NCBI GenBank assembly: GCA_027487385.1 | Contig: JAIYDS010000182.1 | Coordinates: 1 to 52,251, forward strand | Direction of reading: 5' to 3' | Source: Acetobacteraceae bacterium | Lineage (GTDB): Bacteria; Pseudomonadota; Alphaproteobacteria; Acetobacterales; Acetobacteraceae | DNA length: 52,251 nt | Shown here: piece by piece, positions 2,039 to 24,103 of the stretch | Layout of the letters: the number at the start of each line of letters is the position of its first letter | Position numbering within the stretch: the stretch's first letter is position 1 | Made by a program: the position numbers and the translations under genes | The notes under the pieces: model-generated | The model's database searches: none | Told to the model about the DNA's origin: nothing | Seen by the model: the letters and a program-made list of their open reading frames with translations, nothing else

Positions 2039-2086
2039 GGAAAGCTGAGTTTCCGGCCGGGGAGCTTGAGGGGCAGCGCCCCTCAA
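2039..2086. repeat. Two-hairpin intergenic repeat, family A copy 1
   Basis: This holds a 9-bp stem with loop AGC (arms 2066-2074 and 2078-2086, TTGAGGGGC/GCCCCTCAA) and a second stem GGAAA-N6-TTTCC (2039-2054), joined by a GGCCGGGGAGC linker. The first hairpin covers the stop codon of the asparaginase-family gene on the minus strand. It is the same element as those near 24043, 32252 and 32351, in reverse orientation. A further dyad GCGAGAG-N9-CTCTCGC lies at 2004-2026. The rest of the gap to acnD (1840-2003) shows no gene and must hold any acnD promoter. Confidence 0.65.
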
Positions 2087-3554: not shown

Positions 3555-4217
3555 TCAGCCCTCATCCGCCTGACGCGCAAGCCGGATGTCGCGGCGCAGC
3601 ACGAGGACGAAGTTCAACATCATCACCGAAGCCCAGAACAGCGAGAGGAAGTCGAGGACGGAAAGCTCCAGCAGCGGGATGATCGCGCGGAACAGGTCGG
3701 GCAGCAGGAAGAGCAGGACCGCCAGCACCAGGAAGGCCACGCGCAGTTCGGTGGTGCCGATGGAGTCGATGGCCAAATCATGCACGCCGGTGATGATCAG
3801 CCGCGCCAGCGCGAGATTGCTGAGCAGCATGTAAAGCGACAGCAGCAGGAAGGGCACCGGCAAGGAGACCAGGCCCGAGACCGCGAAGCCGAGCGCCAGC
3901 AGGAGATAGGCGATGAGGTCCACGCCATTGTCGAGGATGAAGCCCTGGACCTTGCGCTCGATGCGGCGATGCCGGGCCAGCCGGCCATCCAGCGAATCGC
4001 CCAGCCAGTTCAGGGTGAAGCCGGCGAAGACGAGCCCCAGCGACAGCCAGGAGGTGAGGGCAAGGGCGAAGCCGACGCTGCCCAGAACGGCGCCGAAAAT
4101 TCCAAGCCCGGTCAATTGATCAGGCTTGACCCATCCTGGGAGGCGGGTGACGAGAAAATCGAGGATCCTTGCCTCTGGTCCCGCCAGCAGGCCGCGATTG
4201 GCGCGCCTTGGAATCAC
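3555..4217 (-). CDS. CDP-alcohol phosphatidyltransferase family membrane protein
   Basis: 220 residues with several hydrophobic segments. The family active site is complete: D74, D77-G78-x2-A81-R82, then G92, D96 and D100, i.e. the DxxDGxxAR...GxxxDxxxD metal-binding motif with a 9-residue spacer. Such enzymes move a phospho-alcohol between a CDP-activated molecule and a hydroxyl group; known products include phosphatidylglycerol phosphate, phosphatidylinositol and inositol phosphoryl ceramide. The GTG start overlaps the oxoamine synthase stop as GTGA, so the two proteins are translationally coupled. That suggests it adds a phospho-headgroup to the lipid made by this locus. The substrate cannot be read from sequence; a phosphatidylglycerol- or cardiolipin-type role is the alternative. 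Confidence 0.85.
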   Translation of the reverse strand: MIPRRANRGLLAGPEARILDFLVTRLPGWVKPDQLTGLGIFGAVLGSVGFALALTSWLSLGLVFAGFTLNWLGDSLDGRLARHRRIERKVQGFILDNGVDLIAYLLLALGFAVSGLVSLPVPFLLLSLYMLLSNLALARLIITGVHDLAIDSIGTTELRVAFLVLAVLLFLLPDLFRAIIPLLELSVLDFLSLFWASVMMLNFVLVLRRDIRLARQADEG

Positions 4218-5551
4218 GAGGGATCGAGAACCGCCACCATCGCATCCAACGCTGCATCGATCTGGGCCGGCTCATGCGCCGCGGAGAGGAAGAAGCGGAG
4301 CCGCGACGTGCCCTGCGGAACCCCCGGGGCGATGACGGGGAAGACGTAGATGCCCTGCTGCTCCAGATCCTGCGCGGCCCGGAAGGTCTTGATGTCGGTG
4401 CCGAGGATAATGGGGGTGACGCCAAAGCCCCAGCTGGAACCGACATCGAGTCCCCGCGCCCGGGCGCCTGCGATGAAATGCTGCCCGTTGGCGCGCAGCG
4501 CGGCCACCCGCTCGGGCTCGCGGCGCATGATCTCCAACGCCTTCAGCGATGCCGCCGCCACCGGGGCCGGCATGCCGACGCTGAAGACCAGGCCGGGCGC
4601 GCGCGCCTTGAGGATATCAATCAGAACCTGGCTGCCGCAGACATAGCCGCCGCAACCCACCAGCGCCTTGGAGAGGGTGCCGAACCAGATATCCACCCGG
4701 CTGGGATCCATGCCGCAATGCTCGGCGATGCCGCGGCCCGTCTCGCCGATGACGCCCAGCGCGTGCGCCTCGTCCATCATCAGCCAGGCCTGGAAGCGTT
4801 CCTTGATCTCGACAAGGCGGAAGAGGTCGGGCCCGTCCCCATCCATCGAGAACAGCCCCTCGCTCACGATCAGCACGCGCTCAAAGAGATGGCGCGTCAG
4901 GGTGAGATAGGCTTCCAGATCGTCGAGGTCGTTGTGGCGGAAGGATTTGCGCTGACAGCGCGCACCCTGGGCGCCGACCACCACGCAATTGTGGATCAGC
5001 GAATCATGGATCAACAGATCCTTGGGGCCCAGGATCGTCTCGATCACCGAGGCGGCGGTCGCATGGCCACTGACAAAGAGCGCGCCGGCCTCGGCCTCAT
5101 ACACATCGGCCAGGGCAGCTTCCAATTCCTGGTGCACCGGACGCTCGCCCGCCGTGATCCGGCTCGCGGAAACGCTGGTGCCGTAGCGCAATGCCGCTTC
5201 CTGGTGGGCGGCGAGCACCTCGGGATGACCGTTCAGGGCGAGGTAGTCATAGCTGGCGAAATTCAGCAGCTCCCGGCCATTGATGCGGGTGGTGACGCCC
5301 GCGCGGACGTCATGCGTCCGGTAATAGGGATTCTCGAAGCCGAGCGCCGGGCCGACCTGCCGATCCATCAGGATCTCGCGATAGGCGGGCAACGTCTCAA
5401 AGGACGCGTCGTGCTTCAGGGCGTCGCGACGGAGGGTCCGGGCCCGTGGCTGCCGGCGATCCGGCGTGAGGCCGGGAACAGCCGGAGCCGCCTCATCGGT
5501 GCGGCCGAGATTGCCGAAATCAAGGCCCGTTGTGGGAGACCGGAAATTCAA
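4214..5551 (-). CDS. Alpha-oxoamine synthase (serine palmitoyltransferase-like; RkpG/WcbT type)
   Basis: A 445-residue PLP fold type I enzyme that condenses an amino acid with an acyl thioester, with loss of CO2. Visible residues are the D260-E-A-H263 cofactor motif and the Schiff-base lysine K295 in GTLSKALVG followed by a GG turn. About 90 residues precede the core, as in proteins annotated RkpG/WcbT that accompany capsule-lipid PKSs. Its likely acyl donor is the ACP-bound product of the upstream thioesterase-less PKS, so it would release the chain as a 3-keto amino lipid. The start is TTG, supported by GAGGAGG five bases upstream. A 285-bp gap separates it from the PKS, so it may have its own promoter. 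The amino acid (Ser, Ala or Gly) is not predictable here; AONS or KBL function is less likely given the context. Confidence 0.88.
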   Translation of the reverse strand: MNFRSPTTGLDFGNLGRTDEAAPAVPGLTPDRRQPRARTLRRDALKHDASFETLPAYREILMDRQVGPALGFENPYYRTHDVRAGVTTRINGRELLNFASYDYLALNGHPEVLAAHQEAALRYGTSVSASRITAGERPVHQELEAALADVYEAEAGALFVSGHATAASVIETILGPKDLLIHDSLIHNCVVVGAQGARCQRKSFRHNDLDDLEAYLTLTRHLFERVLIVSEGLFSMDGDGPDLFRLVEIKERFQAWLMMDEAHALGVIGETGRGIAEHCGMDPSRVDIWFGTLSKALVGCGGYVCGSQVLIDILKARAPGLVFSVGMPAPVAAASLKALEIMRREPERVAALRANGQHFIAGARARGLDVGSSWGFGVTPIILGTDIKTFRAAQDLEQQGIYVFPVIAPGVPQGTSRLRFFLSAAHEPAQIDAALDAMVAVLDPS

Positions 5552-5836
5552 ATCAGCCTCCTCACGTCTGGCTGTGGATCCTGAACACCTTACCGCAAAT
5601 TGGTCGTAAAGCGAAACGGATCATCACGCCATCCGCCCGAAATTCCGATTGGAGGTTAGCTACTTAATGAGACGTCGCCAAGGCCTTCGCTAGGGTACTC
5701 CGAGAAAAAGCCCGCCTGTTCCGCAACACCGTCCTGGTGCGATGCAGCATAACCGGCGCCGCTGCCCGCCACAACCAGCTTCTTGCACCCGCGTCCCTGC
5801 CTTTTGGCCAAGTCACTGATCTACAAAGTGAAATGA
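5552..5836 (-). promoter_or_regulatory. PKS to oxoamine synthase intergenic region
   Basis: 285 bp between two genes on the same strand, clearly poorer in GC between about 5570 and 5700 than the flanks. It ends with a strong Shine-Dalgarno GAGGAGG for the TTG start at 5551. I see no convincing coding region and no clear -35/-10 pair. The base composition suggests a separate promoter for the oxoamine synthase gene. Confidence 0.35.
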
Positions 5837-8800
5837 TTAGTGAGACGGCGGAGAGGCCAGGCTGGCGACGATCCGACCCGCCAGATCCCGCACCGAGCGG
5901 CTGCCGCCGATCATCGTCATCGTCATTTCCAACCCGGTTCTTTTCTCAACGGCCAAGCGCAATTCCAGCGCCATGAGAGAATCCAGCCCCAGATCCATCA
6001 GGGGCCGATCCGTCTCCACCGCCTCGGGCGGCAGGCGCAGGATGCGGGCCACCTCGTCCCGCACCAGGCCGAGCAGGGTTTCGGCCGCCGCCTCCGGGCT
6101 CAGGCTGGACAGATCCAGCGCCTCCTCGCCCGGCGCGGCCGTCCCCTGGCCCGCCTCGGCGAAGACCTCGGCGAAATACGGAGAGCGCAGCACGGCCAGC
6201 TTGGTCGCCGCCGGCGACCAACGGATCACCGAATAGGCGCTGACCGGCGCCACCGCCCAGGGCTCGGCCAGCAGGCCGCCCAGATGCCGCAAAGCCTCGG
6301 CCGAAGTCACGCCCGAAACGCCAGTGGCCGCGCGCAGCCGCTCGCCCAGGCCGCGCGTGCGGGCGATGACGCCAACATCGGAAATGGCGCCCCAGCCCAC
6401 CGCCAGCGCCGGCACGCCGCGCTCCCGCAGGCCCAGCACCGCGCCCTCCAGGAAGGCATTGCCCACCACATAGGCCGATTGCCCCGGGCTGCCGACAAAG
6501 GTCGTCGCCGAGGAATAGGCGACCAGGTATTGCAGCCGGTCCCCGGCGATCGCCGCCTCCAACGCCCGCATGCCCTGGATCTTGGGCGCCAGCACGCGAT
6601 GGATCTTCTCCGCCGTCAGGCCAAGGATCATGCCATCCTCCAGCACCATCGCGCAGTGGATGACGCCGGCGATGGGCCCGAATTCCGCCCGCCAGCCGGC
6701 AAAGGCGGCGGCGACGGCGGCCGCATCGGTGACATCCAGCGTCGCCTCGACCAGCGCGCAGCCTTCCGCCCGCAGCCGCTCCAGCCGCTCGGCCTGCTCC
6801 GGCGCCACGCGGCCGGTGCGAGAGGCCAGGATGACGCAGCGCGCGCCCTGCGCGGCCAGCCAGAGGCCGGTTTCCAGCCCGAACCCACCGGTCCCGCCGA
6901 GCACGACATGCACGCCCGGTGCGGGGGTGAAGGCGGCCGCGGCCTCGGCCGGCGGCTCGCCGCGCAGGCTCGGCCGCACCAGGATCTTGCCGATATGGCC
7001 CGAGGCCTGCATCAGCCGGAAGGCATCGGTCACGCGCTCGCCCGGCAGGGCCAGGCAGGGAATGGGCGCAAGCCGCCCCGCCTCGAACAGCGCCATCAGC
7101 GCGCCCAGCATGCGGCGGATCAGCGCCGGATCATGCGCCAGGAGCTGGTCGATATCGGCGCCGATATAGGTCACGTTGCGCACGAAGGGCCGCAGGCCCA
7201 GCCGCGTGTTCTCCAGGAAATCCCGCTTCCCCAGCTCGACGAAGCGGCCGAAGGGGCGCACCAGGCGCAGCGCGGCGCGCATGGCATCGCCTGCCACCGA
7301 GTTCAGCACCACATCCACCCCGCCCACCGCCGCGCGGATCGCGTCCTCCAGGTCCGGCGCGCGGGAATCCACCACATGGTCCGCGCCCAGGCGCCGCAGC
7401 AGGGCGCGCTTTTCGGCCGTGCCGGCCGCCGCCACCACGATGGCGCCATGGGCGCGGGCAATCTGCAGCGCGGCCAGGCCCACGCCACCGGCGGCGCCCT
7501 CGATCAGCACCGTCTCGCCGCGCTTCAGCCCGGCGCGCTCGATCAGCCCATACCAGGCGGTCACGAAGGCGACAGGGATGGCCGCGCCAGCCTCGGCCGG
7601 GATGTCCTGGCCGAGCTGGAACAATTGCGCCGCCGGCAGCGTCAGATGCGACGCGAAGGCCCCGGCGGCGAAGCCCATCACCGGATCGCCCGGCTGGAAG
7701 CCCGCCACACCCGGCCCCACGCCCAGCACCTTCCCGGCGAATTCGAAGCCGAGCGAGGCGCCGGTCAGCCCCTCGCCCAGGATTTCGGAGTCCAGCACGT
7801 TCAGGCCCAGCATCACGTCACGGAAATTCAGCCCGGTCGCGGTGACCGCCACCTCCACCTCGTCCGGCCCGGGGGTGGCACGCGGGGCCAGAATCCAGGC
7901 CAATTCGTCGAGCCCGCGCGGGCCGATGCGCAGCAGGCTGCGCTCGCCCGCGCCCGGGGCACGCGGGGTCGCGGCGGCGAGGCGCGCGGCACGCGGCACC
8001 TCGGCCCCCGTCTCGGTGACGCGGATTTCGCGCTCCTGCAGGGCCTCGGCCAGATGGCGCCGCAGCGCGGGCTCCAGCGTCGCCGCCGTGGCGCCGGGCG
8101 CCAGGACCAGCAGGCAGGTCTCCAGCGTCGGGAACTCGTTCATCAGGCAGCGCGCATAGGCCGAGAGAGCTTGCGCCACAGCGCCGTCCGCCTCGCGCAC
8201 CACCACGTAGAGGCGGCAGGGCGCCTCGCCCTCGCTGAGAGCCAGCGCCAGATTGCGCAGGCGCAGCATGCGGGCGCCAAGCGCTTCCATCTCCTCCGCC
8301 GGCGCGCTGTCGCCCAGTTCGAGCACCACGGCGAAGCCCTCGGGCAGGAGGGCCTGGGCCGCCATCTCCGCCACCTCGGCGGCGGTGACCGCGCCGCGCA
8401 GCTCGAAGCCGGGCAGCATGTCGCGGAAGGCGGCCGCTTCCGCCGCATCGCCCACCGCCAGGCAAAGCGGGCTGCGCGGCGGCGCCACCTCCATCGGCCG
8501 GCGGCGCGGCATGACGGCGCTGACCAGCCGCGCGCCCGAGCCGCCGACCGGCACGGCGCGCAGGATGGTGAAGCCGCGCGAGGCCAGCGCCTCATCCGCC
8601 TCGGAGGGATAGGGCCAGGCGCCCACCGGCAGCTCCGGCGTCGGCGAGAAGCGGAACCAGCCAGGCATGGCCGCGTGCAGCACGTCGATCGCCGGATCAT
8701 GCCCGGGGATGGCCGCCAGCAGGACGGGTGCCTTGGCGCCGAGGCTCGCCAGCATGTCGAGCGGGCTGGGCTCGCCGCCATCCAGCGGCGTGGTGGCGGC

Positions 8801-11800
8801 GCAAAGGGCCAGGTCGAAGACCGCGCCCTCCAGGGCGGAATCCGGCCCCAGGATGGGCACCAGCCGGGCGGCGCCGAGCCGGGCCAGCAGCCGCTCCGCC
8901 GCCGCCACATCGCCAGCCAGGATGGAGAGGGTGATCTCGCCGCCGCGCAGGCGCGGCAGCAGCCGGGCCAGCAACCCCCCCAACCCGGGCTCGAGCAGCA
9001 CGAGGCGCAGCCGGTGCGGCGCGGCGCCACGGATCACCCGGTCCAGCGCTTCCACCAGCGCATCCTGGCTGGGGGCCGAGAAGACCGAGCTGGTCATCAG
9101 CGCATCCAGCAGGTCGGGCTGGGGCGGGATCTCGCCCTCGCCCAGCAGCAGCGGGGGCAGGGCCTCCAGCGCGTGCAGCGCGAGCCGCAGATCGGCGCTG
9201 GCCAGCGGGTGGCGCCGGGCGAAGGCGACCAGCCGCTCATTCGCTTCGGGCGGCGGGGCGGCCATGAGGAACTGCTCCTCGCGCTCCGTCATCCGGCCGG
9301 CATCGCAGAGCGCATCCATCAGCGCCCGCCAGACCACCTGGGCGGCGGGAATGATCCGCCCCCCCAGGGCAGGATCCTGCGCGGCGATCCGGGTGCCGCC
9401 CAGGGCGCCCACCACATGGGCCGCGACATCGAGGCCGAGTTCGACCAGAGCGGCGCGATGGCCGGCGGCCTCCGGCGCCTCGGCAAGGGGGTGGGACAGC
9501 GCCTCGGCCAGCTCCGCCGCCATGTCGCGCGCGCCGGAATCCCAGGGGATCAGCCTGGCGCGCACGATCCGGTCCGCCTCGCGCCAGGTGGAGATGATCA
9601 GGCGCCGCATCACCACGCCCTGGCCCTCGGCCACCACCTCGCCCTCGGCCGAGAGCATGGTGATGTCAAAGACCCGCGCATCGGCCGCCTGCCGCACCAG
9701 GCGGGTCACCGCCCGATGCACCGGGGTGCCGGGCCGATAGAGCGAGAGCCGCGCCATGCGCACCGGCAATTCGCCCAGCACCTGGCCCGGCATCTCCGGG
9801 ATGCCCAGGAAGATGGCGTGGAAGGCGGCGTCATAGCTGGGCGGATCGAGCAGCTGGACATCGCTGAAGAAGCCGAGATCGGCCGGTTCCGGCGCCAGTT
9901 CCGTGATGATCACATCGCCGCAGATGCGCGCCGAGCGGGCCACGCGGAAGGCACCCTCATAGCCCATGCGGCAGCGCTGGGTGGCGGCGTAGATCGCCGC
10001 CTCGTCCCGCACCACGCCCTCCGTGGGCCAATCCTCCGGTGCGGGCGTCGTCGACATTTCGGGCAGCACCACGCCCCTGGCGTGCAGCACCAGGCTGTTC
10101 GCCGGTTCCAACCGCCCGCGCGAGCGGATTTCCACCAGCCGGTCCGCCTCATGCCACAGCAGGCTGACCTCGCGCCCGGCCCCGGGCTCGAAATTCATGG
10201 GGCGGAGGATATCGAGGTCCAGGATGCGCAGCCGCCCCGTGCCATGCACCTCGCGCCCCACCGCCGCGACCATTTCCATATAGGCGGTGGCGGGCAGGAT
10301 GGCCTCGCCATCCACCTTGTGGCCGGCCAGGTGGGGATGCGTCTCCAGGCTCAGGATCTGCCGCCATTCCGCGCCGCCCGGCGCCAGCCTGGTGCCGATG
10401 AGCGGGTGCAGCGGCGCTCCGCCGAAGGAGGGGCCGTAGATGCCATAGGCCTCGCTGGTCTGGCCGATCAGGTAGAATTGCCGGTCCCAGCGCATCTGCG
10501 GCAGGATCCGGGCCGGCGCCAGCGGTGCGGGGCCGGGCTCGGCCAGGCGTGCGCCGCGCGCCATGGCTTCGAGCGGGATGCGCGCCACCGGGTCTTCTTC
10601 GTCCGGCCGCACCGCCTGGGTCAGGGTGGGCAGGGCCACGGCCCGCGCCCCGGCCTGGCGGGCGATCTCCGCGACCAGCGAGCCGAGGATGGGGCGCGGG
10701 CTGATCTCGATGAACAGCTCCGCATCGGCCAGCGCCGCCTCCACCGCCGCCTGGAAGAGGATGGGCGCGCGGATGTTGGACCACCAATAGCCGCCATCCA
10801 GCTCATCCCCGCGCACCGCGGCACCGGTGACGGAGGAGATCATCGGGGTGCGCGTGGCGCCCGGGCGCAGCCCGGCCAGCGAGGCGATGGTGCCCTCGCG
10901 CTCGGGGTCCAGCGCCTGGCTGTGGAAGGGATAGGCGATGTCCAGCGTGACGGTGGCCACGCGCAGGCGGCGCGCCACGCGCAGCACCTCGGCCAGGCCC
11001 TCGGTGGTGCCGGAGATGGTGGTGGAATTGGGCGCGTTGCGGGCGGCGACCTCGACCGTCGCCGCCGCACCGGCCTCGGCGATCAACTCCGCCGCGCGGG
11101 TGGCGTCGCAGGCGAGAACGGCCATGCTGCCCATGCCGCGCACGGATTCCTGGTGCGCGCTGCGCTGCACGATGAGGTGGACGGAATCCTCCAGCGTCAG
11201 CGCGCCCGAGGCGGCTGCCGCCGCAACCTCGCCCACGGAATGGCCCAGCACGAGGTCCGGCCGCAGCCCCTCGGCCTCCAGCGCGGCGCAGAGGGCGAGC
11301 TGGATGGTGAAGAGCAGCGGCTGCATGGCGCTGGTGGCGGCGAGCCGCGCGGCCACATCGGCGGCCTGCATGGTCTCCAGCGGGCAGGCGCCCCCGGCTG
11401 CGCGGATCAGCGCCGCGATCTCGTCGAAGCGGGCGCGAAAGACGGCATTGCCCTGATAGGCGGCGCGGCCCATCCCGGGCCACTGGCTGCCATTGCCGGC
11501 AAAGACGAAGGCGATGCGCGCGCGCCGCGCCACCGCCTCGGCCAGGGCCACGCCGGGGCGGGGGGTATCCAGGTCGCTCAAGGCCAGGGCGGCATCGGGC
11601 TGCTGCGCCAGATCCACCACCAGGCGATGCGGCAGCGCCTCGCGCGTCACGTGCAGTTCATGCGCCACCGCCGCCGCGCCATGCGCCAGCACCGGGTCCA
11701 GATGGGCGCTGGCCAGGGCGCGCAGCGCGGCCTTGCTGTGCGCCGAGATCATCAGGAAGCGCGGGTTCGCGGCCGGCTCCGAAGGGGGCGGGGGGACTGG

Positions 11801-13090
11801 GGCGCTGCCCAGGATGGCGTGCGCATTGGTGCCGCCAAAGCCGTAATTGCACAGGCCGGCGAGCAATTCGCCCTCGCCCGGCAATTCCACCGCCTCGGCC
11901 GCCGGCGCGAGTTGCAGGCCGGCCACGTCAATGTCGGGGTTCAGCTCTTCCAAATAGAGCGTGGCCGGATAGCGCCGCCGGTCCAGGGAGAGGACCAGCT
12001 TGGCCAGCCCCGCCATGCCCGAGGCGGATTCCAGATGCCCGATATTGGACTTCACCGAACCGATGGGCAGCGGCGCCCGGCGATGCCGGCCGAGCGATTC
12101 CCCGATGGCACGAGCCTCGATCGGATCGCCCACGCGGGTGCCGGTGCCATGCGCCTCGACGAAGGAGAGCGCGTCGGGCGAGATGCCGGAGGTGCGGTAG
12201 AGCGCTTCCAGCAAATCCCGCTGGCCGGTCAGCGAGGGCAGGGAGATGCCATTGGTGCGGCCATCCGAATTCACGCCGATGGCGTGCAGGCGGGCGCGCG
12301 GCCGGGCGCCGCCAGGCGTCAGCCCTGCATCGGCGCGGGCCAGCACGATCACCACCGCGCCCTCGGCCCGCACATAGCCATCGCCCTGGGCCGAGAAGGG
12401 CCGGCACCGCCCGGTGGGTGAGAGCATGCCAGCACGCGAAAACCCGATGAAGGGCGCCGGCGAGGAGAGCATATTCACCCCGCCGACAATGGCGCATTCG
12501 ATCCGCCCCTCGGCCAGCGCCGCCGCCGCCTGGGCCAGCGCCACCACGGAGGAGGAACAGGCGGTATCAATCGTCAGGCTCGGGCCCTTGAGGTCGAAGG
12601 CGTAGGAGATGCGGTTCGACACCATGGCCAGGCTGTTGCCCGTCATGAAATGCGCGTCGATGGAGGCAAGGTCGAGCAGCGGCACATCGGCATAGTCGGT
12701 GGCCGAGGCGCCGACATAGACACCCACCTGCCGCCCGGCGAGGCGGGAGGGGGCGATGCCGGCATCCTCCAGCGCCTCCCAGGTCACTTCCAGGAGAACA
12801 CGCTGCTGCGGGTCCATCTGCTCGGCCTCGCGCCGCGACATGCCGAAGGCCGCGGCGTCAAAGCTCAGCCCGTCGCGCAGGTACCCACCCGCAAAGGTGT
12901 AGGTGGTGCCGCGCGCCTTGGCATCGCGGCTGAGGAAGCGTTCCGCGCGCCAGCGTTCGGGCGGGGAGACGTCCTGCACGGCGGAACCGCCGCTCTCCAG
13001 CAGGCTCCACAGGGCCTCCAGATCATCGGCGCCGGGCAGGCGAAGGCTCAGGCCGAGGATTTCGAGGGGGATTGGCAGCGAGAGAAGCAA
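5837..13090 (-). CDS. Highly reducing type I polyketide/fatty acid synthase (RkpA/WcbR-like), no thioesterase
   Basis: 2417 residues. Domains in order: KS 1-430 (Cys178 in DTACSSS, His314, His352); AT about 525-830 (GHSVG, Ser618; YPFHSQ suggests malonyl); DH about 895-1165 (His924 in HxxxGxxxxP, Asp1087); a degenerate methyltransferase-like/structural stretch about 1350-1540; ER about 1720-2040 (GAAGGVG near 1865); KR about 2060-2290 (GGTGGFG near 2065, Tyr2207, Asn2211); ACP about 2330-2417 (LDSL, Ser2371). With every reductive step present, an iterating module would yield a saturated chain. No releasing domain exists, and an oxoamine synthase lies next downstream. Length and domain order match RkpA of Sinorhizobium K-antigen loci from memory. 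The start is TTG at 13090 with GGAA upstream; the KS begins at once. Confidence 0.93.
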   Translation of the reverse strand: MLLSLPIPLEILGLSLRLPGADDLEALWSLLESGGSAVQDVSPPERWRAERFLSRDAKARGTTYTFAGGYLRDGLSFDAAAFGMSRREAEQMDPQQRVLLEVTWEALEDAGIAPSRLAGRQVGVYVGASATDYADVPLLDLASIDAHFMTGNSLAMVSNRISYAFDLKGPSLTIDTACSSSVVALAQAAAALAEGRIECAIVGGVNMLSSPAPFIGFSRAGMLSPTGRCRPFSAQGDGYVRAEGAVVIVLARADAGLTPGGARPRARLHAIGVNSDGRTNGISLPSLTGQRDLLEALYRTSGISPDALSFVEAHGTGTRVGDPIEARAIGESLGRHRRAPLPIGSVKSNIGHLESASGMAGLAKLVLSLDRRRYPATLYLEELNPDIDVAGLQLAPAAEAVELPGEGELLAGLCNYGFGGTNAHAILGSAPVPPPPSEPAANPRFLMISAHSKAALRALASAHLDPVLAHGAAAVAHELHVTREALPHRLVVDLAQQPDAALALSDLDTPRPGVALAEAVARRARIAFVFAGNGSQWPGMGRAAYQGNAVFRARFDEIAALIRAAGGACPLETMQAADVAARLAATSAMQPLLFTIQLALCAALEAEGLRPDLVLGHSVGEVAAAAASGALTLEDSVHLIVQRSAHQESVRGMGSMAVLACDATRAAELIAEAGAAATVEVAARNAPNSTTISGTTEGLAEVLRVARRLRVATVTLDIAYPFHSQALDPEREGTIASLAGLRPGATRTPMISSVTGAAVRGDELDGGYWWSNIRAPILFQAAVEAALADAELFIEISPRPILGSLVAEIARQAGARAVALPTLTQAVRPDEEDPVARIPLEAMARGARLAEPGPAPLAPARILPQMRWDRQFYLIGQTSEAYGIYGPSFGGAPLHPLIGTRLAPGGAEWRQILSLETHPHLAGHKVDGEAILPATAYMEMVAAVGREVHGTGRLRILDLDILRPMNFEPGAGREVSLLWHEADRLVEIRSRGRLEPANSLVLHARGVVLPEMSTTPAPEDWPTEGVVRDEAAIYAATQRCRMGYEGAFRVARSARICGDVIITELAPEPADLGFFSDVQLLDPPSYDAAFHAIFLGIPEMPGQVLGELPVRMARLSLYRPGTPVHRAVTRLVRQAADARVFDITMLSAEGEVVAEGQGVVMRRLIISTWREADRIVRARLIPWDSGARDMAAELAEALSHPLAEAPEAAGHRAALVELGLDVAAHVVGALGGTRIAAQDPALGGRIIPAAQVVWRALMDALCDAGRMTEREEQFLMAAPPPEANERLVAFARRHPLASADLRLALHALEALPPLLLGEGEIPPQPDLLDALMTSSVFSAPSQDALVEALDRVIRGAAPHRLRLVLLEPGLGGLLARLLPRLRGGEITLSILAGDVAAAERLLARLGAARLVPILGPDSALEGAVFDLALCAATTPLDGGEPSPLDMLASLGAKAPVLLAAIPGHDPAIDVLHAAMPGWFRFSPTPELPVGAWPYPSEADEALASRGFTILRAVPVGGSGARLVSAVMPRRRPMEVAPPRSPLCLAVGDAAEAAAFRDMLPGFELRGAVTAAEVAEMAAQALLPEGFAVVLELGDSAPAEEMEALGARMLRLRNLALALSEGEAPCRLYVVVREADGAVAQALSAYARCLMNEFPTLETCLLVLAPGATAATLEPALRRHLAEALQEREIRVTETGAEVPRAARLAAATPRAPGAGERSLLRIGPRGLDELAWILAPRATPGPDEVEVAVTATGLNFRDVMLGLNVLDSEILGEGLTGASLGFEFAGKVLGVGPGVAGFQPGDPVMGFAAGAFASHLTLPAAQLFQLGQDIPAEAGAAIPVAFVTAWYGLIERAGLKRGETVLIEGAAGGVGLAALQIARAHGAIVVAAAGTAEKRALLRRLGADHVVDSRAPDLEDAIRAAVGGVDVVLNSVAGDAMRAALRLVRPFGRFVELGKRDFLENTRLGLRPFVRNVTYIGADIDQLLAHDPALIRRMLGALMALFEAGRLAPIPCLALPGERVTDAFRLMQASGHIGKILVRPSLRGEPPAEAAAAFTPAPGVHVVLGGTGGFGLETGLWLAAQGARCVILASRTGRVAPEQAERLERLRAEGCALVEATLDVTDAAAVAAAFAGWRAEFGPIAGVIHCAMVLEDGMILGLTAEKIHRVLAPKIQGMRALEAAIAGDRLQYLVAYSSATTFVGSPGQSAYVVGNAFLEGAVLGLRERGVPALAVGWGAISDVGVIARTRGLGERLRAATGVSGVTSAEALRHLGGLLAEPWAVAPVSAYSVIRWSPAATKLAVLRSPYFAEVFAEAGQGTAAPGEEALDLSSLSPEAAAETLLGLVRDEVARILRLPPEAVETDRPLMDLGLDSLMALELRLAVEKRTGLEMTMTMIGGSRSVRDLAGRIVASLASPPSH

Positions 13091-13299
13091 GACATGTTTC
13101 CACGAGGGTTGGGGCGAGAGGCCTGCCGCCAGCCTCGTTCAGCGGCAGCCCCGATCCGTCATTCCAGTGATGGCAAATCCGACGGGTGAGGTCGGTCCAC
13201 TTGACGAACAAGGGTCAACCGGCTCGGGATACACGGAATGTACGGCCGTATCCAGCGCCTGCCCGCCTGGGTTGTCCCGCCCCCGCCCGGCGGCGGGCC
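13091..13299. promoter_or_regulatory. Divergent promoter region between PKS and SDR operons, with two dyads
   Basis: 209 bp separate the two divergent halves of the lipid locus. Two inverted repeats lie close together: TTGAC-N8-GTCAA at 13201-13218 and GGATAC-N15-GTATCC at 13227-13253. Both are exact in the arms and of operator size. No confident sigma-70 -35/-10 pair is visible. A shared regulator acting on both operons is inferred, not shown. Confidence 0.45.
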
Positions 13300-14124
13300 A
13301 TGATCCCCCCTTTCGCCCCCCCCGTGGCTCTGGTCACCGGGGGCTCCAGCGGCATCGGCCTGGCCTTGGCCGAGGCGCTGCAGGCGCGCGGTTGCCGTGT
13401 GGTCCTGGTGGCGCGCGATGCTGGCCGGCTGGCGGCCGCCGCGGCCCGCCTCGCGCCGCTCGGCCCCGTCCCGCCCGAGACGCTGGCGCTGGATGTGGGG
13501 GATGCGGCGGCGGTCCGCACCACCATGGAAGCGCTGCTGGCCCGGCACGGCGCGCCCGCCTGGGTGGTCACCAGCGCCGGCATCGCCCGGCCCGGCCGCT
13601 TCCTGGACCAGCCGCTCGCCGAGCATGAGGCGCAGTGGCGCACCAATTACCTCGGCACGCTGCATGTGCTGCATGCGCTGGCGCCAGCCATGGCGCGGGC
13701 CGCGCGCGGGCAGGTGATCCTGATTTCCTCCGCCGCCGCGCTGGGCGGGTTTGCCGGCTACGGCGCCTATGCCCCGTCCAAATGGGCGCTGCGGGGGCTG
13801 GGTGACATCCTGTCCATCGAGCTCGGCGCACACGGGGTGCGGGTGCTGACGGCCTTCCCGCCCGACACCGACACGCCGCAACTGACCGAGGAGCGCGCCC
13901 GCCGCCCCGCCTTCACCGCCCGCTTCGCCGCCGGCAACACGGCCCTGAGCCCCGGCTCGGTCGCCGCCAGCATCCTGCGCGCGGCGGATCGCGGGCGCCG
14001 CCACGTCGCGCCCGGCTTCGGCGCCAGCCTGCTGCTGCTGGCGGGCCCGCCCTTCGCGCGCTATCTGGAGGCACTGCAACGGCGCCTCCTGCGCCGCCAC
14101 CCTGAGGATTCCCGCCCGCCGTGA
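13300..14124 (+). CDS. Short-chain dehydrogenase, 3-ketodihydrosphingosine reductase-like (RkpH/WcbP type)
   Basis: 274-residue classical SDR. The NAD(P) motif TGGSSGIG is at 13-20, with Asn117, Ser143/144, Tyr157 and Lys161 (YxxxK) as catalytic residues. After the active site it reads AFPPDTDTP (185-193); PPDTDTP is characteristic of eukaryotic 3-ketodihydrosphingosine reductases (KDSR/Tsc10). This matches a role in reducing the 3-keto group of the amino lipid released by the oxoamine synthase. The ATG at 13300 places the Rossmann motif about 13 residues in; longer in-frame starts would add a sequence unlike the family and run through the putative operators. It is the first gene of a six-gene overlapping operon. 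Confidence 0.88.
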   Translation: MIPPFAPPVALVTGGSSGIGLALAEALQARGCRVVLVARDAGRLAAAAARLAPLGPVPPETLALDVGDAAAVRTTMEALLARHGAPAWVVTSAGIARPGRFLDQPLAEHEAQWRTNYLGTLHVLHALAPAMARAARGQVILISSAAALGGFAGYGAYAPSKWALRGLGDILSIELGAHGVRVLTAFPPDTDTPQLTEERARRPAFTARFAAGNTALSPGSVAASILRAADRGRRHVAPGFGASLLLLAGPPFARYLEALQRRLLRRHPEDSRPP

Positions 14125-15518
14125 ATCCCTTCTCACTCGATCCGCCCATCCTCGAGGAAGCCGGTGAGGGCTGGCTGATCCCGGCCCATCCGCGCCCGCT
14201 CGACACGCCACCCGGCGCGCTGCGCCTCGCGCTGATGGCCCGGCGCAGCCTGATCGCGCCCTGGACGGCGGACACCTATGCGGCGCGTGACTTCGCCTAT
14301 CCCCTGCTGCGCCGCCAGGTCTGCGTCTTCAACGACCCGGCCTCGATCAAGACGGTCTTCGTCACCCAGGCGGAGCGGTTCGAGCGCAAGGGGGCGATGA
14401 TGCGCCGCGCCCTCTCGCCGCTGCTCGGCGATGGGCTGTTCATCTCGGATGGGGAGACCTGGCGGCGCCGCCGCCCGCTGGTGGCGGATATCGCCCACAA
14501 GACCCAGGTGCCCTTTTATGCCCCGATGATGACCGGCGCGGTGGGCGAGATGCTCGCCAGCTGGCGGGATGGGACGGAGATCAGCCTGCTGCCGGCGATG
14601 GCGGAGCTGACGGCGCAGATCATCGCGCGCTCCATCTTCGGCACCCGCCTGGGGGCGGAGGCGCTGAGTGGGATCGTGCATGGCTTCGGCCGCTACCAGG
14701 CGCGGATCGACAGTTTCAACCTGCCCTTCTTCCTGGGTGCCGCCGAGGGCTGGCCGGTCGGCCGCGGTGCCGCCCTGCGCGCGGCCATCGCCGAGGTGCA
14801 TGGCGTGGTGGAGCATGTCATCACCGAGCATATCGCCGGCCGCGGCGAGCATGGCTCGATGGTGGACCTCCTCGTGCGCCGCATGCAGCGCAGCCCGGCG
14901 CTGGGCCTGAACCTCCAGGCGCTGCGGAACGAGGCCGCCACCATCTTCATGGCGGGCCATGAAACCACGGCCGCGACCCTCGCTTGGGCCTTCTATCTCC
15001 TGGCCAAGGCGCCCTGGGCCGAGGCCGCCCTGCATGCCGAGCTGGATGGGGTTCTGGGGGCGCGCGAACCGACCGCCGAGGATGTGCCGAACCTTCCCTA
15101 TGCGCGGGCCGTGATCGAGGAGACATTGCGCCTTTACCCCCCCGTCCCCATCCTCCCTCGCCAAGCGCGGGAAGCGACGCAAGTGGGGGAAATCATGGTG
15201 GAAAAGGATGCGCTGGTGCTGGTGGTGCCGTGGCTGCTGCACCGCTCGCCCGATCTCTGGGCCGAGCCCACGCAGTTCCGGCCCGAGCGCTTCCTGGGCG
15301 ATGCGGCGCCCGCGCCCTACAGCTACATCCCCTTCTCGGCCGGGCCGCGCATCTGCGCCGGGCTGAATTTCGGGCTGACCGAGGCGATCCTCTGCCTGGC
15401 CATGATCGCCCGCGCCTTCCGGCTGCGGCTCAGGCCGGGCTTCCGCGCCACGCCGGTCTGCCGGCTTTCGCTGCGGCCCCTGCACCCCATCCTGGCCCGG
15501 CTGGAGGCGCGCGCGTGA
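14121..15518 (+). CDS. Cytochrome P450
   Basis: 465 residues with the full P450 signature set: I-helix oxygen-binding motif AGHETT, K-helix ExxR in EETLRLYPP, and the heme loop PFSAGPRICAGLNFG with Cys412 as thiolate ligand. No reductase is fused or encoded nearby, so electrons must come from a ferredoxin/reductase elsewhere. The GTG start overlaps the SDR stop as GTGA, so it is translationally coupled. In this setting the likely substrate is the long alkyl chain of the lipid or its precursor (chain hydroxylation), by analogy with the P450s of sphingofungin and fumonisin-type pathways. Regiochemistry is unknown. Confidence 0.93.
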   Translation: MNPFSLDPPILEEAGEGWLIPAHPRPLDTPPGALRLALMARRSLIAPWTADTYAARDFAYPLLRRQVCVFNDPASIKTVFVTQAERFERKGAMMRRALSPLLGDGLFISDGETWRRRRPLVADIAHKTQVPFYAPMMTGAVGEMLASWRDGTEISLLPAMAELTAQIIARSIFGTRLGAEALSGIVHGFGRYQARIDSFNLPFFLGAAEGWPVGRGAALRAAIAEVHGVVEHVITEHIAGRGEHGSMVDLLVRRMQRSPALGLNLQALRNEAATIFMAGHETTAATLAWAFYLLAKAPWAEAALHAELDGVLGAREPTAEDVPNLPYARAVIEETLRLYPPVPILPRQAREATQVGEIMVEKDALVLVVPWLLHRSPDLWAEPTQFRPERFLGDAAPAPYSYIPFSAGPRICAGLNFGLTEAILCLAMIARAFRLRLRPGFRATPVCRLSLRPLHPILARLEARA

Positions 15519-16408
15519 GCGAGACGCCCCCCCTGCCGGATCGCCGCGCGCCAGGCTGGCGGAACAAGCTGCTCGATGCCTGGGAAATCCTGCAATATCA
15601 GGTGTTCCGCCGCCTGCCGATTGATCTCGGCCCGCGCCTCGCCGCGCCCGGGATCGTCGCCTACATCAAGCGCGAGCGGCCCTGGGTGGTGGAGCGTGCC
15701 CGGGCCAACCTCAAGCGCCACCGCCCTTGGGCCAGCGAGGCGCAGATCGAGGCCTGGGTGGAGACCTTCCTCGACAATATCGGCCGCTATGTGGGCGAGA
15801 CGGCCAGCGTGGGCCGCTACTGGGATGCCGGCCGGATCGAGCTGCCCGACCCGGAGCGTGCCAAGGCGATCCGCCAGCGCGGCGGCGTGCTGGCCCTCTG
15901 CCTGCACACCGGCAATTGGGAGGTGATGCTGGAGGGGCTGAAGGCGGTGGGGATGAGCGCCGCCTGCGCGCCCATCGAATGGGAGACCCGCGGCCAGACC
16001 TGGATCATCAATGATCTGCGCCGGCGGAACGGGCTGCGCTACCTCAGCATGGACCATGGCGGCGTGCGCGCCGCCTACAAGGAGGTGAAGGAGGATGGCC
16101 TGCTGGCCATCTTCGTGGATGAGGCGCGCGAGGGGAAGCTCATGGCCCCCCTCTTCGGCCGGCCGCCGCATGCGGAGGGCAACCTGGCCGTGGCGGCCAA
16201 GCTGGCGCGGCGCAGCGGCTGCACGATCGTGCTCTGCTACGTCACCCGCCTGCCGGAGCAGCGCTTCCGCGTGACCTTCAGCGACGTGATCGAGATGCCG
16301 AAGGAGCCCAAGGGGCTGCTGGAGGATGTCGCCTTCCTCAACAGCGTGATCGAGCCAGTGATCCTGGAGCATCTGGAACAATGGTTCTGGCTCGATGACA
16401 GCTTCTGA
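15515..16408 (+). CDS. LpxL/HtrB-family lysophospholipid acyltransferase-like protein
   Basis: 297 residues of the lipid A acyltransferase superfamily. The HxxxxE/D catalytic motif is HTGNWE (His131, Glu136). A later stretch (FVDEAREGKLMAPLFG) resembles the conserved D-Q-x-piece of LpxL-type enzymes, with the usual DQ altered. The start is GTG at 15515, overlapping the P450 stop as GTGA. It probably puts an acyl chain on the amine or a hydroxyl of the amino lipid, i.e. a ceramide-like acylation. This is inferred from context; a role in lipid A is the alternative, but no lpx genes are near. Confidence 0.82.
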   Translation: MSETPPLPDRRAPGWRNKLLDAWEILQYQVFRRLPIDLGPRLAAPGIVAYIKRERPWVVERARANLKRHRPWASEAQIEAWVETFLDNIGRYVGETASVGRYWDAGRIELPDPERAKAIRQRGGVLALCLHTGNWEVMLEGLKAVGMSAACAPIEWETRGQTWIINDLRRRNGLRYLSMDHGGVRAAYKEVKEDGLLAIFVDEAREGKLMAPLFGRPPHAEGNLAVAAKLARRSGCTIVLCYVTRLPEQRFRVTFSDVIEMPKEPKGLLEDVAFLNSVIEPVILEHLEQWFWLDDSF

Positions 16409-17039
16409 CCCCCCGATCGTCGTCGGCCCGCTGCCGGCGGGGCCGCTGGGCGAGCAAGTGCTGGACCTGGCGGCGACGGGCCGCGCGGGCCTGGCCGCCC
16501 TGCTGGGCGATGCCGCGCAACGCCATGCGCTCTTCCGCCGCGGCATGCGGGCGGATCGTTTCCTGGCGGCCACGGTGGGCGGCGAGCTGGCAGGGTATGT
16601 GAGCCTGAAACATGCCGGAAAAGGGCCCTTCGCGCCGAGCCTGGGCGACTTCATCCGCTGCCAGGGCTGGTGGCGGGGGCTGCATGCCTGGGCCGTGTTC
16701 TCCGCGATCGAGGCGCGCTCCAGGCCCAGCCCGGGCGGCGCCTACCTCTACGGCATTGACGTGCTGGAGAGGTTTCGCGGCCGCTCGCGCCATCCGCCGC
16801 ACGGGGTGGGCGGCGAATTGATCCGCGCGGCGATCAGCCAGACGGGCCGGCTTGGCCTCGCCCGGCTCGACATGGAAACGCGCAACCCCGCCGCCCGCGC
16901 GCTGATGACGCGAATGGGGGCGCAGCCGGTGGTGGCGCCGTTCCTCTCGTTGACCCGCCTGCTGATGGCCACCGCCGGCGATTACGAGCGATTGACCATC
17001 ACCATTCCCTGCGGAGGTCAGGCGGGGCATGTTGGATAG
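16395..17039 (+). CDS. GNAT-family N-acyltransferase
   Basis: A 214-residue protein whose middle part (about 120-180) shows a GNAT core: a strand ending in YGIDVLERFRGR, a basic acyl-CoA pyrophosphate loop (RGRSRHPPHGVGGELI), then the strand and helix in ARLDMETRNPAARALMTRMGA, typical of family C-terminal motifs. It overlaps the acyltransferase by 14 bp and the Rieske gene by 11 bp. The operon thus encodes two different acyltransferases, and this one could acylate the free amine of the lipid or of a sugar. Acceptor and donor are unknown. Confidence 0.78.
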   Translation: MTASDPPIVVGPLPAGPLGEQVLDLAATGRAGLAALLGDAAQRHALFRRGMRADRFLAATVGGELAGYVSLKHAGKGPFAPSLGDFIRCQGWWRGLHAWAVFSAIEARSRPSPGGAYLYGIDVLERFRGRSRHPPHGVGGELIRAAISQTGRLGLARLDMETRNPAARALMTRMGAQPVVAPFLSLTRLLMATAGDYERLTITIPCGGQAGHVG

Positions 17040-18159: not shown

Positions 18160-19415
18160 CGCCCCTCGCCCTCGATATTTCGCGCCTGTTGTGGCGCGCC
18201 GTGCGCTCGGCCCCCGGCGGGATTGACCGGCTGGAACTCGCCATGGCGCGGCACCTGCTGGAGAACGAGCCCGGCACGCGCTTCGTCTTCACCGATGGCG
18301 GCGTGCTCCGCACGCTCAAGCCCGGCCTGGCCCGCCGGCTGATCGAAGGCGCGGCCCAGCGCTGGGCCGGCGATCCGCGTGATTCCGGCTGCCAGCGCGC
18401 CAGCGCCTATCTGGCCGGGCAGGAGGACGCCTTCCCGGCGGCGCGCTCCCGCCTCACCGACCGCCAGGTGCCGCTGGTGGATCTCGGGCGCAACCTGCTG
18501 GCCGGGCTGCTCTACCGGCGGGGTGGGCTCCGGGCGGAGGAGGCTGAAACCCTGGCCGGCACCGCCTATCTCAACCTGTCGCACCGCAACCTCGACAATG
18601 CGAAGCTCTTTGCCGCGCTGTCCCGTGCGGCGCATCTGCTCTGCTACCTGCATGACGACATCCCGCTGCGCACGCCGGGCCTGGCCGCGCCGGGGAGTGA
18701 CCAGCGCTTCCGCCGCATGCTGCGCCATCTGGGCGAGCGGCCGGTGCGGGTCGTCACCAATTCCGCCGCCTCGCGCGCGCGCATCCTGGAAAGCGCGGCG
18801 GCGCATGGTCTCCGGCTGGCGCGGGTGGAGATCGTGCCGCCGCCGGTCGGTTCCATCTTCACCGAGCGGAGCGGCCAGAGCCCCTCGGCCCAGCGCTTCT
18901 TCCTGGTGCCGGGGCTGCTGACCACCCGGAAGAACCTCGCCGTGCTGGCCGAGGCCTGCCGGCAGATGCCCCATTCCCATGGCTTCGACATCGTCTTCGC
19001 CGGCGCGCCGGGCCTGGATGCGGCCGAGGTGCTGGCCCTGCTGGACAACATCCCCCCTGGCATCCGCCTGCTGCGCGCCGAAAGGTTGAGCGACCACGCG
19101 ATGGCGCGGCTGATGCGCGCCAGTGTCGCGGTGCTGGCGCCTTCGCTGGAGGAGGGTTTCGACTATCCGGTGCATGAGGCGCTGGCGATGGGCGTGCCCG
19201 TCATCGCCTCGGACATCCCGGCGCATCGGGAATATGTGGCGGATTTCGCCGAATTGCTCGACCCGCGCGACGCGGCGGCCTGGAGCGCGGCGCTGGCGGC
19301 CTTTCTGTCCGGGGGCGCGCGCCATGCCGCTGCCCTGGCCGCGGCGCGGCGCTTCGCCACGCCCGCACCCGCCAGATTGCTGCGGAGCCTGACGGAACTG
19401 GCGCGCGCGCCCTGA
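18156..19415 (+). CDS. GT4-type (family 1) glycosyltransferase
   Basis: 419 residues with a GT-B fold signature: the C-terminal EGFDYPVHEALAMGVPVIASD segment contains the E-x7-E nucleotide-sugar motif of GT4 enzymes. The N-terminal half is less conserved. The GTG start at 18156 overlaps the Rieske stop (GTGA). It is the last gene of the operon; a hairpin follows three bases after its stop. Its place suggests that the final lipid is glycosylated, which would make it a glycolipid or the anchor of a longer glycan. The sugar cannot be deduced. Confidence 0.87.
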   Translation: MTPLALDISRLLWRAVRSAPGGIDRLELAMARHLLENEPGTRFVFTDGGVLRTLKPGLARRLIEGAAQRWAGDPRDSGCQRASAYLAGQEDAFPAARSRLTDRQVPLVDLGRNLLAGLLYRRGGLRAEEAETLAGTAYLNLSHRNLDNAKLFAALSRAAHLLCYLHDDIPLRTPGLAAPGSDQRFRRMLRHLGERPVRVVTNSAASRARILESAAAHGLRLARVEIVPPPVGSIFTERSGQSPSAQRFFLVPGLLTTRKNLAVLAEACRQMPHSHGFDIVFAGAPGLDAAEVLALLDNIPPGIRLLRAERLSDHAMARLMRASVAVLAPSLEEGFDYPVHEALAMGVPVIASDIPAHREYVADFAELLDPRDAAAWSAALAAFLSGGARHAAALAAARRFATPAPARLLRSLTELARAP

Positions 19416-24098: not shown

Positions 24099-24103
24099 GT
24101 TCC

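What the first reader, a model, noticed from the sequence alone, without database searches (positions are those of the whole stretch)
3555..19415. A polyketide-based, sphingolipid-like glycolipid pathway in one locus
Seen: a complete reducing PKS without thioesterase, an oxoamine synthase, a KDSR-like SDR, a P450, an LpxL-like acyltransferase, a GNAT, a Rieske oxygenase, a glycosyltransferase and a CDP-alcohol phosphotransferase. They form two divergent units with 4-14 bp gene overlaps. Known: PKS-AOS-SDR trios (RkpA/G/H, WcbR/T/P) make a capsule-associated lipid, and fungal PKS-AOS pairs make sphinganine analogues. Inference: the added tailoring set makes a hydroxylated, N- or O-acylated, headgroup-bearing amino lipid of a type not described to my knowledge.
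Basis: partly seen in the sequence, partly recalled or inferred. Interest (0 to 1): 0.9.

Follow-up and report, generated by a model that had tools for sequence, protein, structure and literature searches.

The report
Polyketide-derived sphingoid lipid, probable glycan anchor
A bacterium related to Roseococcus carries a gene cluster that probably builds a sphingolipid-like lipid on a polyketide synthase and fits it with a phosphate head and a sugar, perhaps to hold a surface sugar coat, in a variant of a known route that seems to do without the usual Kdo-adding enzymes.

Summary
The nine genes are real and where stated. The core, an iterative reducing PKS plus oxoamine synthase (AOS) plus SDR, is of a kind already shown to make sphinganines (PfSgaAB, PMC12134224), so that part is not new. 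Within the window's own AOS clade, seven genes (CAPT, AOS, PKS, SDR, P450, LpxL-like, GT4) stay together in 7 of 8 loci long enough to show it; the GNAT and Rieske genes are accessories. In 299 Acetobacteraceae genomes the AOS goes with a capsule-type exporter (90 of 99 AOS+, 41 of 200 AOS-) and in 68 of 99 lies within 12 kb of a KpsS/KpsC-like gene. The window type has a CDP-alcohol phosphotransferase and GT4 instead, and mostly lacks strong KpsS/C matches; G005 and G269 are exceptions. One same-genus copy is embedded in exporter genes. Best reading: a hydroxylated, acylated phospho-glyco-sphingoid lipid that anchors an exported glycan, a variant of the Rkp/Wcb/Sga kind. A free membrane glycolipid is not excluded; all chemistry is inferred.

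The parts
3555..4217 (-). CAPT: CDP-alcohol phosphotransferase-like membrane protein (220 aa); proposed to attach a phospho-alcohol head to the sphingoid base
   Evidence: PF01066 25.1 bits, cut-off 22; full DxxDGxxAR...GxxxDxxxD motif; only weak PDB matches, both choline/ethanolamine phosphotransferases, E 2e-4 and 1e-3; in 14 of 299 family genomes, 13 of them in the AOS list and G032 with an AOS fragment
4214..5551 (-). AOS: PLP-dependent alpha-oxoamine synthase (445 aa), candidate serine palmitoyltransferase acting on the PKS chain
   Evidence: PF00155; best PDB matches are serine palmitoyltransferases 3a2b/8guh at E 3e-64, closely followed by KBL at 1.6e-60; below every NCBIfam cut-off listed; lies in the PKS-linked AOS clade
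5837..13090 (-). PKS: single-module reducing type I PKS, KS-AT-DH-ER-KR-ACP (2417 aa), no thioesterase domain found; iterative use inferred
13300..14124 (+). SDR, proposed 3-keto reductase (KDSR role); the open frame runs back to 13186
   Evidence: PF00106, TGxxxGIG and YxxxK; in L031-L037
14121..15518 (+). Cytochrome P450, proposed lipid-chain hydroxylase
   Evidence: PF00067; haem motif; homologues at E<=1e-90 in 46 of 299 genomes, 45 of them AOS+
15515..16408 (+). LpxL/LpxM-family acyltransferase (about 297 aa)
   Evidence: PF03279, HTGNWE; an LpxL-like gene lies beside the P450 homologue in 9 of 16 P450 loci fetched outside the window type, 10 with the L152/L153 pair split over two fetched pieces
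16395..17039 (+). GNAT acetyltransferase, accessory
   Evidence: PF00583; matched in L031-L034 and L050/L129, not in L035-L037
17029..18159 (+). Rieske non-haem iron oxygenase, alpha-subunit type, accessory
   Evidence: PF00355 and PF00848; relatives seen only in L032 (56%) and as a 75-aa remnant in L034
18156..19415 (+). GT4-type glycosyltransferase (about 419 aa); the open frame runs back to 18030
   Evidence: PF00534 and PF13692; in L031-L037; homology begins at residue 38-59 of the long frame in L031, L034, L035, L036 and at 19 in L032
2083..3524 (-). Flank, not counted as part: asparaginase and a 4HBT-type thioesterase
   Evidence: homologues beside PKS-AOS loci of both types

Best explanation
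The locus builds the lipid terminus of an ABC-exported surface glycan. Proposed steps: (1) the PKS, used iteratively, makes a long saturated chain on its own ACP; (2) with no thioesterase domain, the AOS takes the chain off by decarboxylative condensation with an amino acid, most likely serine, giving a 3-keto-sphingoid base; (3) the SDR reduces the ketone; (4) the P450 hydroxylates the chain and the LpxL-like enzyme acylates either that hydroxyl or the amine; the GNAT and the Rieske oxygenase add lineage-specific decoration; (5) the CAPT transfers a phospho-alcohol from a CDP-alcohol to the sphingoid hydroxyl; (6) the GT4 adds the first sugar. The phospho-glyco-sphingoid lipid then takes the place that Kdo-primed phosphatidylglycerol has in classical capsules and is carried by the KpsMTED-like exporter encoded elsewhere in the genome. 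Shown by computation: gene identities and motifs, conservation of the set in its clade, co-occurrence with the exporter, a trend of KpsS/KpsC absence where CAPT is present. Inferred: every chemical step, the order of steps, the head alcohol, the sugar and the cargo.
For: Seven-gene core in 7 of the 8 loci of the window clade long enough to span it (L031-L037; the eighth, L129, is decayed). AOS with the exporter subunit called KpsE-like: 90 of 99 AOS+ against 41 of 200 AOS- genomes (Fisher 4e-33); by genus 29 of 35 against 22 of 67 (P 2e-6); among AOS+ genomes with CAPT 10 of 13. 77 of 99 AOS+ genomes have KpsS/C (PF05159, E<=1e-40), 68 within 12 kb of the AOS. The own genome has a KpsM/T/E/D-like operon at contig C85 (L166:8171-12688). 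In G013 the window-type cluster lies between KpsE-like plus KpsT genes and KpsE-like plus KpsM genes, with KpsD between SDR and PKS. In G213 (L139) PKS, AOS, KpsM/E/T/D, GT4, LpxL, P450, CAPT and GT4 lie within 20 kb. CAPT goes with two separate AOS lineages (13-row clade, support 100; L136/L139/L140 in a 4-row set, support 98). P450: 45 of 46 genomes AOS+. No canonical SPT found in the own genome: its next AOS homologue is ALA synthase.
Against: In 6 of the 7 intact clusters (L031-L034, L036, L037) no exporter gene was seen at the locus. The exporter also occurs in 41 AOS- genomes, so it is not specific to this lipid, and is missing at E<=1e-20 in 9 AOS+ genomes, 3 of them with CAPT. The Fisher tests do not control for phylogeny beyond the genus count, and the family searches scored at most five candidates per genome for AOS, P450 and KpsE-like. 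KpsS/C is not cleanly absent: G269 has a CAPT and a KpsS/C homologue split over two frames; G005, window type, has a near-full-length but weaker PF05159 match (positions 4-295 of 310, E 1.6e-25); G000, G018 and G019 have short weak ones; 9 of 14 CAPT genomes were not tested at a lax threshold. PfSgaAB, the proven relative, makes free sphinganines and phosphoglycerol sphingolipids, and its paper has no word beginning with capsul. The label KpsE-like rests on position beside ABC and Poly_export genes; Pfam gives no family. The KpsM match is just under the Pfam cut-off (26.5 against 26.9 bits).
Confidence: 0.48

Rival explanations
1. A free-standing, PKS-derived phospho- or glyco-sphingolipid of the cell envelope. 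The lipid is an end product in its own right; capsule export in the same genome is unrelated.
For: PfSgaAB makes free sphinganines and phosphoglycerol sphingolipids. Six of seven intact clusters have no exporter gene beside them, and 7 of 11 window-type genomes have no PF05159 match. One GT4 could suffice for a simple glycolipid. No canonical SPT was found in the own genome, so this could be its only sphingolipid route.
Against: Co-occurrence with the exporter, capsule-type PKS-AOS beside an asparaginase homologue in other species of the genus, and embedding in exporter genes in G013 and G213.
Confidence: 0.35
2. Same pathway, but the AOS uses alanine or glycine rather than serine, so the base has no 1-hydroxyl and the CAPT and GT act on another hydroxyl, for example one made by the P450 or the Rieske oxygenase.
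For: Sequence does not settle AOS specificity: SPT and KBL structures score nearly alike, and no NCBIfam cut-off is reached.
Against: The characterised PKS-linked AOS, PfSgaB, almost exclusively prefers serine. A CAPT and a GT fit a 1-hydroxyl acceptor best (inference).
Confidence: 0.12
3. An ordinary Rkp/Wcb-type Kdo-primed capsule anchor, with KpsS/KpsC merely elsewhere in the genome.
For: Type-K loci in the same genus have PKS-AOS with full-length PF05159; exporter present; G005 has a near-full-length weaker PF05159 match (E 1.6e-25) and G000 three short ones.
Against: No PF05159 match at E<=0.001 in 7 of 11 window-type genomes, among them the one- and two-contig genomes G006 and G015.
Confidence: 0.07
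4. Only PKS-AOS-SDR form a pathway and the tailoring genes are chance neighbours.
For: The GNAT and Rieske genes come and go; L129 has lost parts of P450 and LpxL; AOS relatives at 55-62% identity (L038, L131-L135) show none of the set nearby.
Against: Seven genes kept in the same arrangement at 37-88% identity in L031-L037, P450 co-occurrence 45 of 46, CAPT 14 of 14, pN/pS below 1.
Confidence: 0.04

Closest known systems
PfSgaAB(C) of Pseudomonas fluorescens MYb115 (PMC12134224; abstract, sections 7, 8, 9 and discussion read, passages elsewhere)
   Same: Iterative type I PKS, AOS with SPT activity, KDSR-like SDR; products include probable phosphoglycerol sphingolipids
   Different: Described as a two-gene cluster plus an SDR; no P450, LpxL-like, CAPT or GT4 named in what I read; no word beginning with capsul in the text
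RkpA/RkpG/RkpH of Sinorhizobium and WcbR/WcbT/WcbP of Burkholderia (single gene roles recalled; passages seen in PMC3908369 and PMC7902896)
   Same: Mono-modular PKS in gene clusters for capsular polysaccharide synthesis and export; AOS and SDR partners (recalled)
   Different: Those loci carry KpsS/KpsC-type genes (recalled); the window locus has none and carries CAPT, GT4, P450 and LpxL-like genes
ABC-exporter capsule system KpsSC-KpsMTED (PMC11041684, abstract and passages)
   Same: Lipid anchor, ABC exporter with KpsE and KpsD-type partners
   Different: Anchor there is phosphatidylglycerol extended with Kdo by KpsS and KpsC
Fungal PKS-AOS pairs (fumonisin, sphingofungin; search listing only, details recalled)
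   Same: Highly reducing PKS chain released by an AOS, SDR reduction, P450 hydroxylation
   Different: Secreted mycotoxins; no CAPT, LpxL-like or glycan-export context (recalled)

Membership tests
PKS-AOS sphingolipid clusters (SgaAB type) | Single-module PKS KS-AT-DH-ER-KR-ACP without thioesterase | tested here: met
PKS-AOS sphingolipid clusters (SgaAB type) | AOS beside the PKS, related to SPT | tested here: met
   PKS-linked AOS clade. PfSgaB itself was not compared
PKS-AOS sphingolipid clusters (SgaAB type) | AOS condenses serine with a long acyl thioester | not testable with these tools
   no assay; sequence does not settle it
PKS-AOS sphingolipid clusters (SgaAB type) | KDSR-like SDR in the cluster | tested here: inconclusive
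   an SDR is present and conserved; no KDSR-specific family was matched among the 25 of 209 NCBIfam rows shown
Rkp/Wcb Kdo-primed capsule anchor | KpsS/KpsC-type Kdo transferases (PF05159) with the PKS-AOS | tested here: not met
   none in the locus; own genome only three short weak matches and none at 1e-40. 7 of 11 window-type genomes have none; G005 has a near-full-length weaker one
Rkp/Wcb Kdo-primed capsule anchor | ABC exporter with polysaccharide export partners in the genome | tested here: met
   KpsE-like protein in 20 of 20 genomes, 11 of 11 window type; operon in own genome
Canonical bacterial sphingolipid pathway | Stand-alone SPT above the curated family cut-off | tested here: not met
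   best hit to NF047603 in own genome 231 bits against cut-off 670, and it is ALA synthase; genome 88.75% complete; other SPT models not searched genome-wide
CDP-alcohol phosphotransferases | DxxDGxxAR...GxxxDxxxD active site | tested here: met
   PF01066 above cut-off
CDP-alcohol phosphotransferases | Activity on a CDP-alcohol with a sphingoid acceptor | not testable with these tools
   AlphaFold2 model poor (mean pLDDT 57)

The most novel reading that the evidence does not exclude
A second, Kdo-independent way of making the lipid terminus of an ABC-exported polysaccharide: a PKS-derived sphingoid base, hydroxylated by a P450 and acylated by an LpxL-family enzyme, receives its head from a CDP-alcohol phosphotransferase and its first sugar from a GT4, and so replaces phosphatidylglycerol plus KpsS/KpsC. 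Species of both types occur within two genera of Acetobacteraceae (g1 and g126), and the CAPT type in two AOS lineages, so the swap would have happened more than once.
Probability: 0.32. Interest if true: 0.78.

Novelty: new variant of a known kind. Interest (0 to 1): 0.6.

Why it matters
If right, it joins two literatures, PKS-derived bacterial sphingolipids (SgaAB, 2025) and PKS-containing capsule loci (rkp, wcb), and predicts the lipid of those capsules: a sphingoid base where classical systems use phosphatidylglycerol. It would also give a KpsS/KpsC-free priming route, and a P450-LpxL pair as a hydroxylate-then-acylate unit. The prediction is testable by lipidomics in cultured Roseococcus.

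Tried and rejected
AlphaFold2 of the CAPT with six relatives gave mean pLDDT 57; no fold search was made on it. AOS substrate by sequence: SPT and KBL structures too close to tell. NCBIfam gave no family above cut-off among the rows shown for the cluster proteins (SDR 25 of 209 and PKS 25 of 93 rows shown). The nine-gene set as a unit was rejected. Strict mutual exclusion of CAPT and KpsS/C (0 of 13 against 77 of 86) was weakened after the G269 copy was seen and on rereading (G005); for this I lowered the main reading from 0.50 to 0.48 and the novel case from 0.35 to 0.32, and raised the Kdo rival from 0.05 to 0.07. Chance-neighbour reading rejected. First NCBIfam scan of the C93 gene used the wrong frame and found nothing; repeated in the right frame. 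A first clustering script stopped with an error and was finished; gene calls there are home-made (base composition), not a gene finder's. Paper searches: rkpA+rkpG+rkpH, none; Roseococcus lipids, two papers, not read; others (12 of 368 listed; 12 of 19; 10 of 14; 12 of 22; 10 of 27) showed in titles and abstract starts no sphingoid capsule anchor and no CAPT-containing PKS-AOS cluster. A 2025 review of capsule attachment (PMC12220298, word search and passages) has no word beginning with sphing or polyketide. PMC4245539 and PMC9386255: passages only. Only open-licence papers are held. Rows dropped: tree left out duplicates of loci already in, AOS matches under 330 aa, and L082 (stop in the matched stretch); 73 of its 108 rows carry no type label. 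Maps show only matches over 60 aa at E under 1e-8.
Full report
What is there. The window is contig C301 (bases 1-52,251) of a 5.49-Mb, 313-contig draft genome, 88.75% complete. Leftward unit: PKS, AOS, CAPT. Rightward unit: SDR, P450, LpxL-like, GNAT, Rieske oxygenase, GT4. The expected active-site motifs were found in the proteins examined for them, except the AT extender motif. Overlaps of 4 to 14 bases join the rightward genes and CAPT/AOS (likely starts of LpxL and GT4: GTG at 15515 and 18156); AOS and PKS are 285 bp apart. All nine genes show pN/pS below 1 against up to four relatives.

Conservation. tblastn of window proteins on 100 fetched loci (L029-L128) shows CAPT-AOS-PKS divergent from SDR-P450-LpxL-GT4 in L031 to L037 (AOS identity 60-84%; lowest for any core gene 37%, LpxL in L035). 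One more locus of that clade that spans the cluster, L129 (G244), has lost most of P450 and LpxL, whose remaining ends abut, and shows no GT4 match. L029, L030, L049 and L130 are cut by contig or locus ends. The GNAT is in L031-L034 and L129, the Rieske gene in L032 and as a 75-residue remnant in L034. So seven genes are core and two are accessories. Against a wider unit: Acetobacteraceae loci of a neighbouring AOS clade at 55-62% identity (L038, L131-L135) have an SDR by the AOS (and the PKS, except in the 3.7-kb L135), but no CAPT, P450, LpxL or GT4 match in the stretch fetched.

Two types in one genus. Other species of the genus have a PKS-AOS locus whose AOS is only 47-50% identical; in L042-L044, L047 and L048 it lies near an asparaginase homologue (62-81%), with the 4HBT gene seen in L042-L044. 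L047 carries a formyltransferase and a PF05159 (KpsS/KpsC) gene. In the AOS tree (quick method) the window clade (13 rows, support 100) groups with Rhizobiales, Beijerinckiaceae and the L131-L135 rows (33-row set, support 99), away from the same-genus type-K rows; I infer replacement in place with horizontal transfer. L063 (Beijerinckiaceae) is a bridge: SDR, PKS, AOS, a PF05159-family homologue (by clustering), LpxL and P450 in one locus.

Co-occurrence in 299 Acetobacteraceae genomes. AOS (E<=1e-80): 99. CAPT (E<=1e-15): 14; 13 are among those 99, and G032 has an AOS fragment at a contig end. P450 (E<=1e-90): 46, of which 45 AOS+. PF05159 (E<=1e-40): 112, of which 77 AOS+, 68 within 12 kb of the AOS. 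None of the 13 CAPT+AOS+ genomes reached that PF05159 threshold, against 77 of 86 other AOS+ genomes (Fisher 8e-11). Against this: G269, one of the 13, has a PF05159 homologue (48%) in two frames, so interrupted, and nine of the 14 CAPT genomes were never tested at a lax threshold. At E<=0.001, 7 of 11 window-type genomes have no PF05159 match; G000, G018 and G019 have short weak ones; G005 has a near-full-length one at 1.6e-25. Six type-K genomes of the genus have full-length ones at 5e-61 or better; G020, with no close AOS, has one too.

Link to export. A KpsE-like protein, so called because it lies between ABC-transporter and Poly_export genes (Pfam gives no family), is found in 90 of 99 AOS+ and 41 of 200 AOS- genomes (Fisher 4e-33); by genus in 29 of 35 against 22 of 67 (P 2e-6). 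By type: 76 of 77 with KpsS/C, 10 of 13 with CAPT, 4 of 9 with neither. Thirty-four of the 41 AOS- carriers have PF05159, so probably ordinary capsules. The own genome has this operon on contig C85 (ABC membrane protein just under its Pfam cut-off, ATPase, KpsE-like, Poly_export protein). In G013, same genus, the window-type cluster is surrounded by exporter genes: KpsE-like at 521486, KpsT next to it, KpsD between SDR and PKS at 531462, a second KpsE-like at 542041, a KpsM match following. That KpsD type was found in 4 of 20 genomes (G013, G213, G154, G086). In G213 the exporter, GT4, LpxL, P450 and CAPT follow PKS-AOS within 20 kb (L139).

P450 and LpxL as a pair. Of 16 P450 loci fetched outside the window type, 9 have an LpxL-like gene within 4 kb and a tenth, G008, has it across the edge of two fetched pieces; six have none. 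In many of these genomes the pair is on another contig or tens of kb from PKS-AOS, yet the genomes are AOS+. I infer that the pair acts on the PKS-AOS lipid in trans: hydroxylation, then acylation of the new hydroxyl, as LpxL-family enzymes do on lipid A (recalled). N-acylation of the amine is the alternative. One genome, G331, has the P450 without the AOS.

What it most likely does. Steps proposed: iterative chain assembly; release by the AOS with an amino acid, most likely serine; ketoreduction; P450 hydroxylation and acylation; phospho-head from a CDP-alcohol; first sugar; use as glycan anchor. The first steps rest on PfSgaAB, where PfSgaB was shown to condense serine with acyl-CoAs, phosphoglycerol sphingolipids were proposed from exact mass, and the SDR step is itself only proposed (PMC12134224, sections 7 and 8). 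A phosphoglycerol sphinganine resembles lyso-phosphatidylglycerol; in classical capsules a phosphatidylglycerol anchor is extended with Kdo by KpsS and KpsC (PMC11041684, passages). The SgaAB paper has no word beginning with capsul. The bridge between the two is my inference. No canonical SPT was found in the own genome; its next AOS homologue is ALA synthase.

Novelty. The core is known; the seven-gene variant and its apparent use of CAPT plus GT4 where others have KpsS/KpsC was not seen in the listings of searches, which show parts of their results and cover open-licence papers only. I rate it a new variant of a known kind. Confidence is high that a PKS-derived amino lipid is made, moderate that it anchors a glycan.

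Noticed in passing
3090-3524 (-): 4HBT-type thioesterase (PF03061) next to asparaginase (2083-3216), beside PKS-AOS loci of both types in several genomes; it could edit or release PKS chains, or be a mere landmark.
   Followed up: partly
L047:10694-11749 and L147, L155, L174, L175, L176: A formyltransferase (PF00551 in L047; tblastn relatives) sits with AOS and KpsS/C in type-K loci and beside the CAPT in L147, L174 and L175, about 3.6 kb from it in L176, near P450/LpxL in L155; it might N-formylate the sphingoid amine, where the window group has a GNAT.
   Followed up: no
L129:12505-13035: In G244 the first 94 residues of the P450 and the last 100 of the LpxL-like protein lie next to each other, as after an internal deletion; GT4 not matched. 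L049, at similar AOS identity, keeps a P450 matching residues 1-457, to the locus edge.
   Followed up: partly
L166:8171-17146 (own genome, contig C85): Capsule-type export operon followed directly by an HlyD-like adaptor and an AcrB-family RND pump; the same order of homologues in L165 and L168.
   Followed up: no
24089-25246 (+): UDP-GlcNAc 2-epimerase (PF02350) about 4.7 kb right of the cluster; possible supplier of a ManNAc-type sugar, link untested.
   Followed up: no
L171:3869-5027 (G269): PF05159 homologue in two frames in a genome that also has a CAPT: an exception to, or a dying trace of, the KpsS/C type.
   Followed up: partly
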